A stretch of 64,000 bases of DNA from Robiginitomaculum antarcticum DSM 21748 (GTDB lineage: Bacteria > Pseudomonadota > Alphaproteobacteria > Caulobacterales > Maricaulaceae), in contig NZ_KB823014.1 in NCBI RefSeq assembly GCF_000365025.1, positions 62,001 to 126,000 of the forward strand, in the 5' to 3' direction. The notes under the pieces are model-generated. The model worked only from the letters and a program-made list of their open reading frames with translations. It was not told the origin of the DNA and searched no databases. The translations under genes and the position numbers were made by a program. This document shows positions 31,604 through 36,444 of the stretch, piece after piece; the stretch's first letter is position 1; every line of letters begins with the position of its first letter.

Positions 31604-31728
31604 TCCGCCATTTAAATTTTATAACTTTACCGTTTAAATTCTTTTTAAGCGGCTATCGGCGCTGCCCTATCGCGCATTGCACGGACTATCGTTCCATGGC
31701 ATCACGGCCTTCATATTATGGATTGCAT

Positions 31729-33258
31729 ATGAAATCTGATTGGACACTCGATCACAAACGCCTCCCTGCAGGCGCGGTATTGATCGTCGGGGCGGGGCTG
31801 GCGGGTCTCTATATGGCGCTTAAGCTTGCGCCGCGCCCCGTCTTTATCCTGACCTCAAGGCGCTCTCGCAAAGGCGCGGCGAGTGCATGGGCGCAGGGCG
31901 GTATTGCTGCGGCGCTCTCCGCCGATGACAGCGCCGCCGAGCATGCGGCAGATACGATCGCGGCTGGAGACGGGCTGGTTGATCCGGATATTGCGCTTCT
32001 GCTCGCGACTGAAGGGCCTGACCGCGTAAGAGAGCTTCTTTCGCTGGGCGTACCATTTGATTTAACCGATAATGGTGACTTTATTTTAGGCTTGGAGGCC
32101 GCGCATAGCCGCCCGCGCGTGGCCAAAGTCAAAGGTGACGGCGCAGGCCGCGCGATCATAGATGTCATGTTGGAGCACGTCCAAGCCGCAGACCATGTGA
32201 CGGGCCTGATCGGCTGGCGCGCCGAAAGCTTACTGCCTGACGGCAATGGCGGCGTGGCGGGCGCGCTCGCGCGTAATGATAGCGGCGCGCTGCTGGGTAT
32301 TGAAGCCGATATGACTGTGCTCGCCACAGGCGGGGTTGGCGGACTGTTCGCGGTGACGACCAATCCGCGGACGGCGCGCGGCGACAGTCTGGGCATGGCG
32401 GCGCGCATTGGCGCAACTCTACGCGATTCTGAATTTGTGCAGTTCCATCCCACCGCCATAGATATTGGCCGCGACCCCGCGCCTCTGGCCACCGAAGCGC
32501 TGCGCGGCGACGGGGCAATCCTTGTCGGATCTGACGGCCTGCGGTTTATGGATAGCTATCATCCCAAGGGCGAGCTTGCTCCGCGCGATGATGTCGCCCG
32601 CGCTATATTTGCTGAAATTCAGGCAGGGCGGCAACCCTTTCTGGATTGCCGCACCGCGATTGGCGATCACTTCCCTGAAGAATTTCCAACCGTATTTGCA
32701 ATCTGTCAGAGCGCGGGCATTGACCCGCGCACACAGCTTATCCCCGTCGCACCCGCCGTGCATTACCATATGGGCGGGCTGGCGACGGACAGCGTGGGGC
32801 AGACCAACAAGGACGGCCTGTTTGCCATCGGGGAATGCGCTGCCACGGGCGTGCACGGGGCCAACCGCCTCGCCAGTAATAGCCTGCTGGAGGCGATCGT
32901 CTTTGGCGGCCGCGCCGCGCAGCACATCCTCTCCCATGACATGCCGCAGCGCAGCGCGGACACAATCGAGAGCCAGCCTTGGCTGTCTATGGGACGGCAG
33001 GTCAGCTGGACACTTCGCCAAGGCATGACGCAATATTGCGGCGTGCGCCGCAATGGGCGTGATTTGAATATTTTGCTGGAAATAATTGACAGCCTTATCG
33101 CTAAAGTCGGCGAGGCCAATCCGCTTATTGCATCCAAAATGATCGCCGCCGGCGCGCTGGCCCGCGAAGAATCACGTGGCGGGCATTTTCGCGAAGATTT
33201 CCCCGAGGAGGCCACCCCCGCGCGCAGCTCCTACCTGACCCTAGATGATTTGGGATAG
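31729..33258 (+). CDS. nadB: L-aspartate oxidase
   Basis: 509 residues from ATG 31729. An FAD enzyme that oxidises L-aspartate to iminoaspartate for NadA. The dinucleotide-binding fold (VLIVGAGLAGLYMALKLA), the serine/alanine stretch (KGAASAWAQGGIAAAL), the active-site block (EFVQFHPTAID, YHMGGLATDSVGQT) and the FAD end motif GANRLASNSLLEAIVFGGRA are all visible. The usual C-terminal helical domain is shorter than in Escherichia. Confidence 0.95.
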   Translation: MKSDWTLDHKRLPAGAVLIVGAGLAGLYMALKLAPRPVFILTSRRSRKGAASAWAQGGIAAALSADDSAAEHAADTIAAGDGLVDPDIALLLATEGPDRVRELLSLGVPFDLTDNGDFILGLEAAHSRPRVAKVKGDGAGRAIIDVMLEHVQAADHVTGLIGWRAESLLPDGNGGVAGALARNDSGALLGIEADMTVLATGGVGGLFAVTTNPRTARGDSLGMAARIGATLRDSEFVQFHPTAIDIGRDPAPLATEALRGDGAILVGSDGLRFMDSYHPKGELAPRDDVARAIFAEIQAGRQPFLDCRTAIGDHFPEEFPTVFAICQSAGIDPRTQLIPVAPAVHYHMGGLATDSVGQTNKDGLFAIGECAATGVHGANRLASNSLLEAIVFGGRAAQHILSHDMPQRSADTIESQPWLSMGRQVSWTLRQGMTQYCGVRRNGRDLNILLEIIDSLIAKVGEANPLIASKMIAAGALAREESRGGHFREDFPEEATPARSSYLTLDDLG

Positions 33259-33263
33259 TGCCG

Positions 33264-33352
33264 TTAGTTTATAAGCATGCCACGATTAGTTTATAAATTA
33301 TAAAAATCTATACTATTTATAACTTGCTGCAGATTAGTTTATAGACTATAAT
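33264..33352 (+). promoter_or_regulatory. fic promoter with three operator-like repeats
   Basis: TTGCTG at 33,324-33,329 and TATAAT at 33,347-33,352 are 17 bases apart. The expected transcription start falls at or next to the ATG at 33,359, so the message would be leaderless; no ribosome site is visible. TTAGTTTATA occurs at 33,264, 33,286 and 33,334, the last copy between the -35 and -10 boxes, consistent with a repressor site. Confidence 0.55.
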
Positions 33353-33358
33353 ATACTA

Positions 33359-34687
33359 ATGAGAATACCTGCAACACCACCTCATAATAACATTGGTGAA
33401 TATTTAAGCGACCCGCAAAGCGCAGAAAAGCTTCCTGAGTTACAATATAAAATTTCAAGTGCAAAAGAATATTTACACTGGGATTTGTTAAGGCGGAAAA
33501 AGACGCCTGAAAATGTATCTGCTGAATTTTATTGGGCAGTTGTAAAGTTAGTTCGAATGATGACAAGAGTTTTCGTTCCTCTCGTTGAGAGAACAGATCC
33601 TCAACGTAATTTTCATTATACTCGCCCCGACAGCCTGCTCGCCAAACTTCGACAAATAGATCTTAAAGCAGGCGGCTTGGTTACAGCTACTGGAGACACA
33701 GGCGTAGACATCGACAGTCGCAGATACTTAACGCGTTCAATTCTTGAAGAACCCTTCAGTAGTTCAGTTCTTGAAGGTGCTGCGACGACGCGCGAAAGAG
33801 CAAGAGAAATAATCGATCAGGGAGCCACTCCACTAAATGAGAGTGACCGTATGGTTTTGAATAATTATCGGGCAATGATGTTTATAAAAAATCATAAGGA
33901 CGAAATGCTCACGCCTGAGTTAATTTGTCAATGCCACAAGATTATTACTGAAGGAACCCTGAAGCACCCTGAAATGGGGGGCCGCTTCCGTGACAATAAT
34001 GACGTAGATGTCGCAGATAGCATAACCGGTGATGTTTTCCACATTCCGCCCAATTTCACTGAGCTTGATTGGCGGATGAGTTTTCTCTGCGATTTTGCTA
34101 ATGCTGGGGAGGGCGAAGAAATACGATTTATTCACCCCGTGATTCGGGCAATAGTTTTGCACTTTATGCTGTCCTTTGATCATCCATTTGTGGATGGAAA
34201 TGGCAGAACTGCGCGCGCTCTATTTTACTGGTCAATGTTACGGTCAAAATACTGGTTAATGGAATATGTTTCTATATCGACAATAATAAAGCGCGCGCCT
34301 AAAAAGTATGGTTTAGCATTTTTACACACTGAAACCGATGAAGGCGACCTAACTTATTTTATTTTACACCAACTCGACATAATTTTAACGGCTCTCGACG
34401 AACTGGATCAATATCTAGACCGGCAAAAAAGACGCCATGCACAAGCCAGTACTCTTATATTAGATGAACAGATCAACAGACGACAACGGGCTCTTCTTAT
34501 TGAGTTTTCACGACGTGTAGTCATGAAAATCACCATTAAGCAGCACAAAAATAAAGAGAAAGTCTCCTACCTTACAGCGCGATCAGACCTTGAAAATCTA
34601 GCAGAACATGGATGGCTAACAAAAGATGCATCGGGACGCCCAACATATTATTCCCCCGGCTCTAAACTGCGTAGTATAATGCAATAG
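33359..34687 (+). CDS. Fic-family AMP-transferase with N-terminal inhibitory motif
   Basis: 442 residues. The Fic motif HPFVDGNGRTAR is complete near residues 276-287. An inhibitory motif of the S-x-x-x-E-G type (SSSVLEG) lies before it near 135-141, which marks class II Fic proteins. An N-terminal Fic-type helical domain (SAKEYLHWDLLRRKKTPEN) and a C-terminal winged-helix-like region (KVSYLTARSDLENLAEHGWL) complete the common Fic/DUF4172-like layout. It probably modifies a protein hydroxyl with AMP. Low G+C, its own promoter, and position between nadB and nadC indicate insertion into the NAD operon. Confidence 0.88.
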   Translation: MRIPATPPHNNIGEYLSDPQSAEKLPELQYKISSAKEYLHWDLLRRKKTPENVSAEFYWAVVKLVRMMTRVFVPLVERTDPQRNFHYTRPDSLLAKLRQIDLKAGGLVTATGDTGVDIDSRRYLTRSILEEPFSSSVLEGAATTRERAREIIDQGATPLNESDRMVLNNYRAMMFIKNHKDEMLTPELICQCHKIITEGTLKHPEMGGRFRDNNDVDVADSITGDVFHIPPNFTELDWRMSFLCDFANAGEGEEIRFIHPVIRAIVLHFMLSFDHPFVDGNGRTARALFYWSMLRSKYWLMEYVSISTIIKRAPKKYGLAFLHTETDEGDLTYFILHQLDIILTALDELDQYLDRQKRRHAQASTLILDEQINRRQRALLIEFSRRVVMKITIKQHKNKEKVSYLTARSDLENLAEHGWLTKDASGRPTYYSPGSKLRSIMQ

Positions 34688-34698
34688 ATACACTAACA

Positions 34699-34732
34699 AT
34701 GAGATTAATTCATAACTATGAGATTAATACAT
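34699..34732. repeat. Tandem 15-base direct repeat after fic
   Basis: ATGAGATTAATTCAT at 34,699-34,713 recurs as ATGAGATTAATACAT at 34,718-34,732, 19 bases apart. It lies in the AT-rich gap between fic and nadC and could be an operator or part of the insertion boundary. Confidence 0.5.
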
Positions 34733-34817
34733 CAAACTTAAATCGCTCACCCCAGTACAGAAAATATCAAATTACCTTTGTATCATCGCACTTAGACATA
34801 CTTTATGAAAGTTGACA

Positions 34818-35681
34818 ATGACCGATCTCCCCCCCCTTCCCCGCGTCATAATCGAGCCCATGGTGCGGCGCGCGCTTATCGAGGATTTCGGTAATAGCGG
34901 CGACCTGACGGCGAATATATTAGTGCCGGATAACGCGCATAGTGCCCTGTCTTTCCGGCCGCGCGAAACGGGTATTATTTGCGGGCAGCAGCTGGCGGCG
35001 CTGACCTATGAACTCGTCGATAGCCGCGTTAATTATGAACTTTTATCGACTGACGGAACGGCAGTAAAACGTCATGACGTCACCGCCCGCGTAGATGGCC
35101 CGGCGCGCAGTCTTTTGTCTGCCGAACGTGTGGCCTTAAATTTCATGGGCCGTATGAGCGGGATTGCGACTCTGACATCGCGCTATGTCGAGGCCGTTAG
35201 AGGCACATCAGCGCGTATTGCCGCGACGCGTAAAACCACGCCAGGGCTGCGCGCGATTGAAAAATATGCCGTGCTGGCGGGCGGCGGTTATGCCCACCGC
35301 GAGAGCCTCGCCGCAGCCATCATGATTAAAGATAATCATATTGCGCTGGCGGGCGGCGTGGACGCCGCTTTGTCGCGCATAAAAGCGCGCGCCGATCACA
35401 TGGCCAAGATCAGCGTCGAGGTCGACACATTAGAGCAATTTGAAACCGTTTTATCTTATGAACCGGACGTGATCTTGCTGGATAATATGAGCCCGGCGCA
35501 ATTATCTGAAGCTGTAAAAATCGCAGGATCGACACAATATCGCCGCCCCACACTCGAAGCCTCCGGGGGCGTTAATCTTGACACTGTAGCCGCCATTGCC
35601 GCCTCCGGCGTCGACGTGATTAGCGTTGGCGCGCTGACCCACAGCGCACCCAATTTCGATGTCGGACTGGACGCGATATAG
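34818..35681 (+). CDS. nadC: Nicotinate-nucleotide pyrophosphorylase (carboxylating)
   Basis: 287 residues from ATG 34818. It converts quinolinate and PRPP to nicotinate mononucleotide, completing the NadA-NadB route. Family blocks: EDFGNSGDLTANILVPD, ERVALNFMGRMSGIATLT, the substrate-binding ATRKTTPGLRAIEKYAVLAG, GYAHRESLAAAIMIKDNHI and the late EASGGVNLDTVAAIAASGVD. A TTG two codons earlier is possible but less likely. It is separated from nadB by fic, so it may depend on fic-region transcription or its own promoter. Confidence 0.95.
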   Translation: MTDLPPLPRVIIEPMVRRALIEDFGNSGDLTANILVPDNAHSALSFRPRETGIICGQQLAALTYELVDSRVNYELLSTDGTAVKRHDVTARVDGPARSLLSAERVALNFMGRMSGIATLTSRYVEAVRGTSARIAATRKTTPGLRAIEKYAVLAGGGYAHRESLAAAIMIKDNHIALAGGVDAALSRIKARADHMAKISVEVDTLEQFETVLSYEPDVILLDNMSPAQLSEAVKIAGSTQYRRPTLEASGGVNLDTVAAIAASGVDVISVGALTHSAPNFDVGLDAI

Positions 35682-35805: not shown

Positions 35806-35840
35806 TTGTCCTTTGAATACTTTTTCAAATGGAGATTAAG

Positions 35841-36131
35841 ATGATTATTAGAAGTGTACGCCATAAAGGTTTAAAGCGCTTAATACAAAAGAACGACCCG
35901 AGCCTGTTGCCCGCTCAATATGTAAGCAAAATTAGGCGTTTATTACTGGCCTTGAGTATGGCCACAGACATTAATGACTTTTTGGCTCTTCCCCACGGAC
36001 GGCCTCACAAATTGAAAGGAGATCGTTCAGATAGTTATGCAATTTCTGTATACGCCAATTGGCGCCTGACGTTTATTTATATGGAGGATGATCAGTCTCT
36101 CCATATTTTAGACTTTGAGGACTATCACTGA
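35841..36131 (+). CDS. higB: HigB-family mRNA interferase toxin
   Basis: 96 residues from ATG 35841 (GGAG seven to eight bases upstream). It has the RelE/HigB fold: IIRSVRHKGLKRLIQKNDPS, then ALPHGRPHKLKGDRSDSYAI and the conserved core SVYANWRLTFIYMEDD, ending in LDFEDYH. It should cut mRNA on the ribosome. It precedes its antitoxin, the order typical of HigBA. The two genes are ten bases apart. Confidence 0.9.
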   Translation: MIIRSVRHKGLKRLIQKNDPSLLPAQYVSKIRRLLLALSMATDINDFLALPHGRPHKLKGDRSDSYAISVYANWRLTFIYMEDDQSLHILDFEDYH

Positions 36132-36141
36132 TCTGAAGCTT

Positions 36142-36444
36142 ATGACTATCGAGTTTAATATACCACCGGAGCACCCCGCAGGATTCCTAAAGGATTGGAT
36201 ATTGCCTGAGGGTATGACTGTTACCGAAGCGGCCAAGCGATTGGGCGTTTCGCGGCAAAGTCTTGATGCGCTTTTGAACCAGCGGCGATCCCTCACCCCC
36301 GAAATGGCCAAACGTCTGGAGCTCACCTTTGGCGGCACAGCCCGTTTGATGCTCGCCTTACAGACCAAATATGATTTATATCTCACTGAACAACGGGTTG
36401 CAGAAATTGCTAAAACTTTGACGCCCTTTAAACGAGCTGGCTAG
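36142..36444 (+). CDS. higA: HigA-family antitoxin with XRE helix-turn-helix
   Basis: 100 residues from ATG 36142. The N-terminal part includes the HigA motif HPAGFLKDWILPEGMTVTEA, then a helix-turn-helix (AAKRLGVSRQSLDALLNQRR) and FGGTARLMLALQTKYDLYLT. It should bind HigB and repress the pair's promoter. It looks intact. Confidence 0.92.
   Translation: MTIEFNIPPEHPAGFLKDWILPEGMTVTEAAKRLGVSRQSLDALLNQRRSLTPEMAKRLELTFGGTARLMLALQTKYDLYLTEQRVAEIAKTLTPFKRAG

What the first reader, a model, noticed from the sequence alone, without database searches (positions are those of the whole stretch)
33259..34732. Fic gene inserted in the NAD operon with a leaderless, repeat-bearing promoter
A class II Fic gene of low G+C splits nadB from nadC. 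Its promoter ends at the start codon, and three TTAGTTTATA repeats overlap it. Fic enzymes and NAD synthesis both use nucleotides, but simple insertion is also likely. The repeats suggest a dedicated or self-encoded repressor; the Fic C-terminus looks like a winged helix.
Basis: partly seen in the sequence, partly recalled or inferred. Interest (0 to 1): 0.5.

Follow-up and report, generated by a model that had tools for sequence, protein, structure and literature searches.

The report
Putative self-repressing Fic gene insertion
A foreign gene for a Fic-type (AMP-transferring) enzyme has landed exactly between two NAD-synthesis genes, and it and its closest relatives carry a small palindrome at their own promoter that the enzyme's DNA-binding tail most likely sits on to keep the gene switched down.

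Summary
A low-G+C class II Fic gene (33359-34687) lies between nadB and nadC; a perfect TATAAT box ends 6 nt before its ATG, and TTAGTTTATA occurs three times upstream of it. The direct repeat is the wrong unit: the conserved element is an inverted repeat, TTATA-N3-TATAA. I formed this idea on three genomes and then found the element (at most one mismatch) upstream of all 8 further alphaproteobacterial members of its clade; shuffles average under 1 of 11. TATAGNCTATA occurs 16 times in ten fic-bearing genomes, 12 of them in front of fic. The element marks one well-supported clade of the Fic tree; in the other large clade 10 of 23 members carry a different dyad (TCAA-N-TTGA), mostly against the start codon. 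The Fic C-terminus is predicted with high confidence as a winged helix. Best explanation: the enzyme represses its own, often leaderless-looking, promoter, as shown experimentally for the Yersinia Fic protein CccR. The NAD link looks coincidental: 51 other family genes have no nad genes in the flanks held, and none of 29 nadC loci of relatives has fic. Binding, transcript start and enzyme activity are inferred. New variant of a known kind.

The parts
31696..33258 (+). nadB, L-aspartate oxidase (left flank of the insertion)
   Evidence: NCBIfam PRK07512 659.1 bits, over cut-off 528
33259..34817 (+). 1559-bp insert between the nadB stop codon and the nadC ATG: fic with its regulatory region and a 130-bp AT-rich tail
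   Evidence: nadB stop and nadC start are 2 nt apart in same-genus G003 (L142) and 3 nt apart in same-genus G005 (L148); upstream 25% G+C, tail 30%
33264..33274 (+).
33291..33303 (.). distal dyad TTATAAATTATAA, putative operator 2
33324..33329 (+). putative -35 hexamer TTGCTG (3 of 6)
   Evidence: weak, not listed
33339..33351 (.). proximal dyad TTATAGACTATAA, putative operator 1, overlapping the -10 box
33347..33352 (+). putative -10 box TATAAT, 6 nt before the ATG (leaderless geometry)
33359..34687 (+). fic: class II Fic protein with a C-terminal winged helix
33761..33778 (+). inhibitory-helix motif S-xxx-E-G, residues 135-140
34181..34216 (+). Fic active-site motif HPFVDGNGRTAR, residues 275-286
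34454..34687 (+). C-terminal winged helix-turn-helix (residues 366-442), putative DNA-binding domain; putative recognition helix at SYLTARSDLENL
   Evidence: AlphaFold2 mean pLDDT 92.0; PDB matches of Z 8.8-10.3 to winged-helix proteins, many of them repressors, and to the CbFic2 domain
34818..35681 (+). nadC, nicotinate-nucleotide pyrophosphorylase (right flank of the insertion)
   Evidence: NCBIfam TIGR00078 304 bits, over cut-off 198.4

Best explanation
The gene is a horizontally acquired, stand-alone class II Fic AMP-transferase gene that represses itself. The protein's C-terminal winged helix, acting as a dimer, binds dyads TTATA-N3-TATAA in its own promoter. The proximal dyad covers the -10 box and lies close to the start codon of a leaderless message, so binding blocks RNA polymerase and sets a low level of a potentially toxic enzyme; the distal dyad helps by cooperative binding. 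The message starts at or next to the ATG and has no ribosome-binding site, so read-through from the NAD operon would give little Fic protein. The NAD location is an accident of insertion. Shown here by sequence: the insertion, the class II and catalytic motifs, the winged-helix fold prediction, and the conservation and fic-specificity of the dyads. Inferred: binding, dimer action, repression, the transcript start, AMPylation, toxicity and the role of the distal dyad.
For: Dyad (at most 1 mismatch) within 200 bp upstream in 11 of 11 members of the alphaproteobacterial clade, 20 sites, against a shuffle mean of 0.78 sites and 0.75 members (largest 4 of 11 in 500 shuffles); 1 of 26 loci matched through other Fic genes has one. 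Eight of the 11 were found after the dyad had been recognised on the first three (then 33, 37, 51). TATAGNCTATA: 16 sites in 10 genomes, 12 in front of fic, at least one in every genome. Protein identity among the 11 is 40-70%. They form one branch, support 100/98. Their putative recognition helix reads V-(S/V)-Y-(L/I/H)-T-A-R in 11 of 11. In the phage/plasmid/gamma clade, TCAA-N4..20-TTGA lies within 70 bp in 10 of 23 members (shuffle mean 1.65, largest 8), in the alpha clade in 0 of 11. Winged helix predicted at pLDDT 92.0. The family profile reaches CccR (7xux, E 1.2e-21), the best stretch running to profile position 432 of 449, so into the C-terminal domain; CccR is an experimentally shown autorepressor. 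Six of 11 members combine a proximal dyad at -12 to -20 with a -10-like hexamer 5-8 nt before the start and a Shine-Dalgarno match of at most 3 of 6.
Against: No binding, expression or activity data. The window's own dyads do not stand out by strength: the best inverted repeat in -70..+3 has p = 0.29 because the region is AT-rich, and 29 of 44 family members are not individually significant in that test. In 4 of 11 members (L052, L054, L057, L058) the only dyad is distal, at -92 to -106, so the start-codon layout is not universal. The recognition-helix link is loose: L006, L007, L061, L177, L040 and L068 share Y-x-T-A-R with other residues at x and have no TTATA dyad. Other places could be bound: the own genome has three further exact TTATANNNTATAA sites, two of them upstream of unrelated ORFs, and G044 and G015 have four TATAGNCTATA sites away from fic, two just upstream of ORFs. 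Genome-wide the dyad is hardly commoner than its reversed pattern (5 against 4 in the own genome; 16 against 12 in ten genomes); only the place is special. No chance control was run for the -10 spacing. The operator differs in geometry from CccR's, whose half-sites are 26 bp apart.
Confidence: 0.67

Rival explanations
1. The dyads are bound by a separate host repressor (for example one that silences foreign AT-rich genes), and the Fic winged helix serves another purpose, such as activity control by DNA as reported for CbFic2.
For: No binding test exists; the CbFic2 wHTH is reported to switch enzyme activity (passages); a few dyads lie upstream of unrelated ORFs.
Against: 12 of the 16 exact sites in ten genomes lie in front of fic. 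The dyad is also in G641, outside the window's order. It follows the Fic clade, and the other large clade tends to carry a different dyad.
Confidence: 0.17
2. The dyads are by-products of AT-rich promoter sequence (TATA boxes that happen to be palindromic) with no regulator.
For: The window's dyad strength is unremarkable for its composition (p = 0.29).
Against: Dinucleotide shuffles of the same regions give dyads in 0.75 of 11 members on average, largest 4 in 500. Loci reached through other Fic genes have them in 1 of 26. Distal copies lie 68-183 bp before the start codon.
Confidence: 0.1
3. Fic was recruited into the NAD operon because it acts on NAD synthesis or responds to nucleotide levels.
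For: Only the position; Fic enzymes use nucleotides.
Against: No nadA/B/C in the held flanks of 51 other family genes (60 loci). No fic in 29 of 29 nadC loci of relatives. G+C marks fic as foreign. A second foreign-looking cassette, higBA, flanks nadC on the other side.
Confidence: 0.04

Closest known systems
CccR of Yersinia pseudotuberculosis (PDB 7XUX; PMC9755527: abstract, section 10 part 1, section 40 and found passages read)
   Same: Class II Fic with an N-terminal inhibitory motif and a C-terminal HTH; negative autoregulation through palindromic sequence near -35/-10; homologous by profile (E 1.2e-21) and fold (VIA Z 24.0, rmsd 6.8 over 309 residues).
   Different: CccR is a secreted T6SS effector; the VipB family is absent from this genome. 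CccR's operator is a 10-bp inverted repeat with a 26-bp spacer, here a compact 13-bp dyad with a 3-bp centre, in two or more copies in 7 of 11 members. The CccR chain is 380 aa; this family is 423-504 aa (broken L049 left out) with an extra N-terminal region. A leaderless promoter was not mentioned in the CccR passages I read.
CbFic2 of Coxiella burnetii (PDB 8CIL; PMC10628234, passages read)
   Same: Class II Fic with a C-terminal wHTH that binds DNA; profile E 4.6e-22; wHTH domain Z 9.7, rmsd 2.5 over 73 residues.
   Different: Carries DUF4172 at the N-terminus; DNA binding is reported to switch AMPylation/deAMPylation; the terms 'own promoter', 'operator' and 'inverted repeat' do not occur in its main text.
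SoFic (PDB 3ZCN/3EQX; PADLOC SoFic)
   Same: Best whole-model match by VIA-align, Z 27.2, rmsd 4.2 over 333 residues, model 77-441, so including the C-terminal domain; PADLOC SoFic profile E 3.4e-38. SoFic is described as an abortive-infection anti-phage protein (PMC12249575, passages).
   Different: Far below the NCBIfam SoFic cut-off (31.8 against 550 bits); no partner like the 47-aa antitoxin AS1 was recognised (not compared with AS1 itself).

Membership tests
Class II Fic proteins | Fic motif HPFx(D/E)GN(G/K)R | tested here: met
   HPFVDGNGR at 275-283; motif as quoted in the PMC2686095 abstract
Class II Fic proteins | Inhibitory motif (S/T)xxxE(G/N) N-terminal to the Fic motif | tested here: met
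   S135xxxE139G140, invariant in the 11 rows of A1 and the 19 rows of A2
Class II Fic proteins | AMP transfer to a target protein | not testable with these tools
   Motifs intact only; no activity data
CccR-type autorepressing Fic | C-terminal helix-turn-helix DNA-binding domain | tested here: met
   Winged helix predicted, pLDDT 92.0, matches to winged-helix repressors; DNA binding itself not tested
CccR-type autorepressing Fic | Palindromic sequence in its own promoter near -35/-10 | tested here: met
   Dyads at 33291 and 33339, the latter overlapping the -10; 11 of 11 alpha-clade members have a dyad upstream
CccR-type autorepressing Fic | Operator with half-sites about 26 bp apart | tested here: not met
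   Arms of each dyad are 3 bp apart; the window's two dyads are 48 bp apart start to start
CccR-type autorepressing Fic | T6SS-delivered effector | tested here: not met
   No VipB-family (PF05943) match in the window's genome; rings in the E. coli control, 1 of 14 control genomes
CccR-type autorepressing Fic | Binding to and repression of its own promoter | not testable with these tools
   Inferred from conservation only
SoFic defence protein | NCBIfam NF046030 equivalog cut-off (550 bits) | tested here: not met
   31.8 bits
SoFic defence protein | Small downstream antitoxin (AS1-like) | tested here: inconclusive
   A 38-codon ORF (34699-34815) follows fic; best match in the held loci outside the window's own DNA has E 0.37; not compared with AS1 itself
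Leaderless genes of alphaproteobacteria | Transcript starts at the start codon | tested here: inconclusive
   TATAAT ends 6 nt before the ATG and the best Shine-Dalgarno match is 2 of 6; the 5' end is not mapped

The most novel reading that the evidence does not exclude
A one-protein toxin-antitoxin logic: a mobile Fic family found on viral contigs, plasmids (one beside a baseplate gene, so probably phage-plasmids) and chromosomes, in which the enzyme is its own transcriptional antitoxin and the operator changes from clade to clade. Anything that pulls the protein off its operator (a phage factor, DNA damage, nucleotide state or self-AMPylation) would at once raise its synthesis and free the enzyme, giving an autocatalytic switch for abortive infection or plasmid addiction. 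DNA binding might also toggle the enzyme's activity, as reported for CbFic2.
Probability: 0.2. Interest if true: 0.7.

Novelty: new variant of a known kind. Interest (0 to 1): 0.42.

Why it matters
[quoted passage not shown] If the reading is right, autorepression is not a peculiarity of one secreted Yersinia effector but a conserved property of a mobile class II Fic clade, with a compact operator laid over the promoter. It gives exact DNA targets in 11 genomes for a simple binding test. It also removes a misleading lead: the NAD-operon position is most likely an accident.

Tried and rejected
NAD link: looked for nad genes in 60 loci that hold 51 other family genes (nine order members were held twice, with wider flanks); none found. 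Strength of the inverted repeat as evidence by itself: rejected, since the window's own dyad is unremarkable for AT-rich DNA (p = 0.29); the argument rests on conservation and place. TTAGTTTATA as the regulatory unit: rejected, because the TTAG prefix is not shared by relatives. Recognition helix as a code for the operator: only weakly supported, since six members outside the alpha clade share Y-x-T-A-R without the TTATA dyad. A 38-codon ORF downstream of fic as an AS1-like antitoxin: no convincing match among held loci outside the window's own DNA (best E 0.37). Target-site duplication: no shared word of 7 or more bases between the insert ends examined, so the way of insertion is unknown. A regulon: of the four off-fic sites in G044 and G015, two lie just upstream of unrelated ORFs (L182, L184) and two inside ORFs (L183, L185); of the three in the own genome, two lie upstream of ORFs (L197, L198) and one inside an ORF (L199). 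I saw no common theme, but these ORFs were read by eye and not searched against families. The one of 26 other-Fic loci with a dyad is L031, the window genome's own second Fic gene (1 mismatch allowed). Papers: eight searches brought up, as relevant, CccR, CbFic2, Sofic, a 2009 Fido analysis and a 2026 AMPylation review (passages); one plasmid paper looked into holds no mention of Fic. I saw no description of this subfamily's operator; the library holds open-licence papers only and most papers were seen as listings or passages, so this is not proof of absence from print.

Changed after re-checking: the recognition-helix argument was weakened, the off-fic sites upstream of ORFs and the reversed-pattern counts were added, the nad-gene count was restated as 51 genes in 60 loci, and confidence in the best explanation was lowered from 0.70 to 0.67 (and the host-repressor rival raised from 0.15 to 0.17) for these reasons.

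Rows dropped: of 52 family loci read, L047 and L048 (start unclear) and L049 (reading frame broken, left as it is) were dropped and four unclear starts were set by hand; five near-copies (L045, L050, L069, L070, L071) were dropped, leaving 44; L172 was further dropped for the tree (43 rows). Starts of L051, L176 and L178 were also set by hand. Start choices rest on the N-terminal MxxPxxPP-like pattern. The TCAA-TTGA pattern was chosen after seeing the sequences, so its excess over shuffles is post hoc; 13 of 23 members lack it. The pattern TTATANNNTATAA was likewise chosen on the first three members; the other eight are the test.

Full report
What is there. Its G+C is 42.2% (36.1% at third positions) beside 61.4% and 57.1% for its neighbours; the 100 bp upstream are 25% and the 130 bp downstream 30% G+C. 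The start codon is well supported: many relatives begin with a similar M-(K/R)-x-P-x-x-P-P. The protein has the class II inhibitory motif (S135, E139, G140) and an intact active-site motif (275-286); S135, E139, G140 and most of the active-site motif are invariant in the family alignments.

Insertion. Of 29 nadC loci from other genomes, none has fic or higB; 25 have nadB within the stretch, and in 22 of these nadB ends 61 nt or less before the nadC match or overlaps it; three have larger gaps (L144 610, L152 419, L170 277 nt, the last uncertain); in four no nadB is within reach. In the three same-genus loci the gap is 2 nt (G003, L142; nadB 89% and nadC 83% identical), 3 nt (G005, L148) and 45 nt (G001, L149); two other same-genus genomes, incomplete, gave no nadC match. 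The window has 1559 nt there. In L142, nadC is followed by the homolog of the window's next gene, with no higBA, so the higBA pair at 35829-36444 is a second insert in the window's lineage or was lost in the other: two foreign-looking cassettes bracket nadC. No target-site duplication was recognised. None of 60 loci, which hold 51 other family genes, has a nadA, nadB or nadC homolog (flanks held range from about 1.5 to 5 kb, less at contig ends). I conclude that the NAD context is most likely accidental.

From direct repeat to dyad. TTAGTTTATA occurs three times, 0.08 expected. Comparison with the G015 and G044 homologs (44% and 46% identical) showed that the shared unit is the palindrome TTTATA-N3-TATAAA. 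The order scan then gave 7 more members (10 of 398 genomes in all, own included), and the class scan one more of this kind, G641 (3 of 385 genomes, own included; the other hit, G545, is a distant member without the dyad). All 8 carry the dyad: in total 11 of 11, 20 sites within 200 bp, against a shuffle mean of 0.78 sites and at most 4 members of 11; 1 of 26 loci reached through other Fic genes has one, and 4 of 38 family rows outside this clade. The nine other members from the phylum scan (10 of 398 genomes, own included) have none. Exact TATAGNCTATA occurs 16 times in the ten order genomes; 12 sites lie in front of fic and each genome has at least one; the reversed pattern occurs 12 times in these genomes and never within 250 bp upstream of fic in the 11 members. 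G641's proximal dyad is TTATAGGTTATAA, so it does not match this stricter pattern. Seven of 11 members have two or more dyads. In five (L055, L056, L059, L060, L171) there is one at -12 to -15 and one at -103 to -116; the window has -20 and -68, L051 has -28, -160 and -183.

Promoter. In the window, TATAAT ends 6 nt before the ATG, which would put the transcript start at or next to the A of ATG; the best Shine-Dalgarno match is 2 of 6. Seven of 11 members have a -10-like hexamer (at least 4 of 6) 5-8 nt before the start and a Shine-Dalgarno match of at most 3 of 6; six of them (window, L055, L056, L059, L060, L171) also have a proximal dyad there, the seventh (L054) has only a distal one. L052, L057 and L058 have Shine-Dalgarno matches of 4-5 of 6 and only a distal dyad; L051 fits neither type well. 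I ran no chance control for the hexamer spacing. Leaderless messages are known to be common in Caulobacter crescentus (375; PMC4117421, passages). No terminator was recognised on the + strand between 33200 and 34900, so fic and nadC may share a message; the lack of a ribosome-binding site would limit Fic translation from nad read-through (inference).

Regulator. The model of the whole protein (mean pLDDT 83.9, pTM 0.82) matches SoFic best by VIA-align (Z 27.2, rmsd 4.2, 333 residues) and also CccR (Z 24.0, rmsd 6.8, 309 residues). The C-terminal 77 residues modelled alone give a winged helix (pLDDT 92.0); the 50 entries listed (Z 8.8-10.3) are largely MarR-, ArsR- and IclR-type regulators and the CbFic2 domain, with some others such as Z-alpha domains and DsrD. 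The dyad-bearing members are one branch of the family tree (100/98) and read V-(S/V)-Y-(L/I/H)-T-A-R at the putative recognition helix, but six members elsewhere share Y-x-T-A-R without the dyad, so this is not a code. In the other large clade, from viral contigs, plasmids and other Pseudomonadota, 10 of 23 members have TCAA-N-TTGA dyads, nine of these ending 1-11 nt before the start codon and one 32 nt before it; the alpha clade has none of these. Across 44 distinct members, inverted repeats in -70..+3 are stronger than in shuffles as a set (15 of 44 below 0.05; combined p 5e-12), but the window's own is not (p = 0.29). Operators that differ by clade of the Fic protein are what a self-encoded repressor predicts, though shared descent of promoter and gene predicts part of it too.

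Known precedents. Fic-HTH fusions were proposed to regulate fic expression in 2009 (PMC2686095, passages). CccR was shown to repress its own promoter through palindromic sequence by reporter, gel shift, footprint and mutation (PMC9755527, section 10 part 1). The window's family shares that logic, if the reading is right, but not its spacing or its T6SS delivery. Hence 'new variant of a known kind'.

What the enzyme is for is open. Some family members lie on plasmids with phage-type genes (a gene annotated as a baseplate protein is next to fic in L041) and on viral contigs. The PADLOC SoFic profile matches (3.4e-38) and SoFic is described as an abortive-infection protein (passages), so defence or addiction is a reasonable guess, but nothing here tests it.

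Noticed in passing
35829-36444: A HigB/HigA-type toxin-antitoxin pair sits between nadC and the next gene and is absent from the same-genus genome G003 (and higB from all 29 nadC loci of relatives held), so nadC is bracketed by two foreign-looking cassettes.
   Followed up: partly
34699-34815: A 38-codon ORF follows fic and ends 2 nt before the nadC ATG; it begins in a doubled ATGAGATTAATnCAT. No convincing match in the held loci outside the window's own DNA.
   Followed up: partly
L051, L054, L055 (twice), L056, L059 upstream regions: A second recurring element, roughly TTATAAA(C)nnnTAAC(C)CA(T/C)TGA, lies upstream of fic in several relatives; I did not see it in the window.
   Followed up: no
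L042:2024-2739 and L063:5469-6047: RelE/HigA- or HigBA-type toxin-antitoxin genes are also close neighbours of the fic homolog on a Vibrio plasmid and on a viral contig.
   Followed up: no
G000:C3:255724-256329 and G000:C1:966595-966828: The same genome holds two further Fic-domain ORFs (358 and 129 aa open frames); the upstream region of the first has one dyad-like site with up to one mismatch.
   Followed up: partly
L049 (Rahnella victoriana plasmid): The fic homolog there appears broken (match in two pieces, no annotated gene).
   Followed up: no
L144, L152: In these relatives nadB and nadC are separated by about 610 and 419 nt without fic; what lies there was not examined.
   Followed up: no
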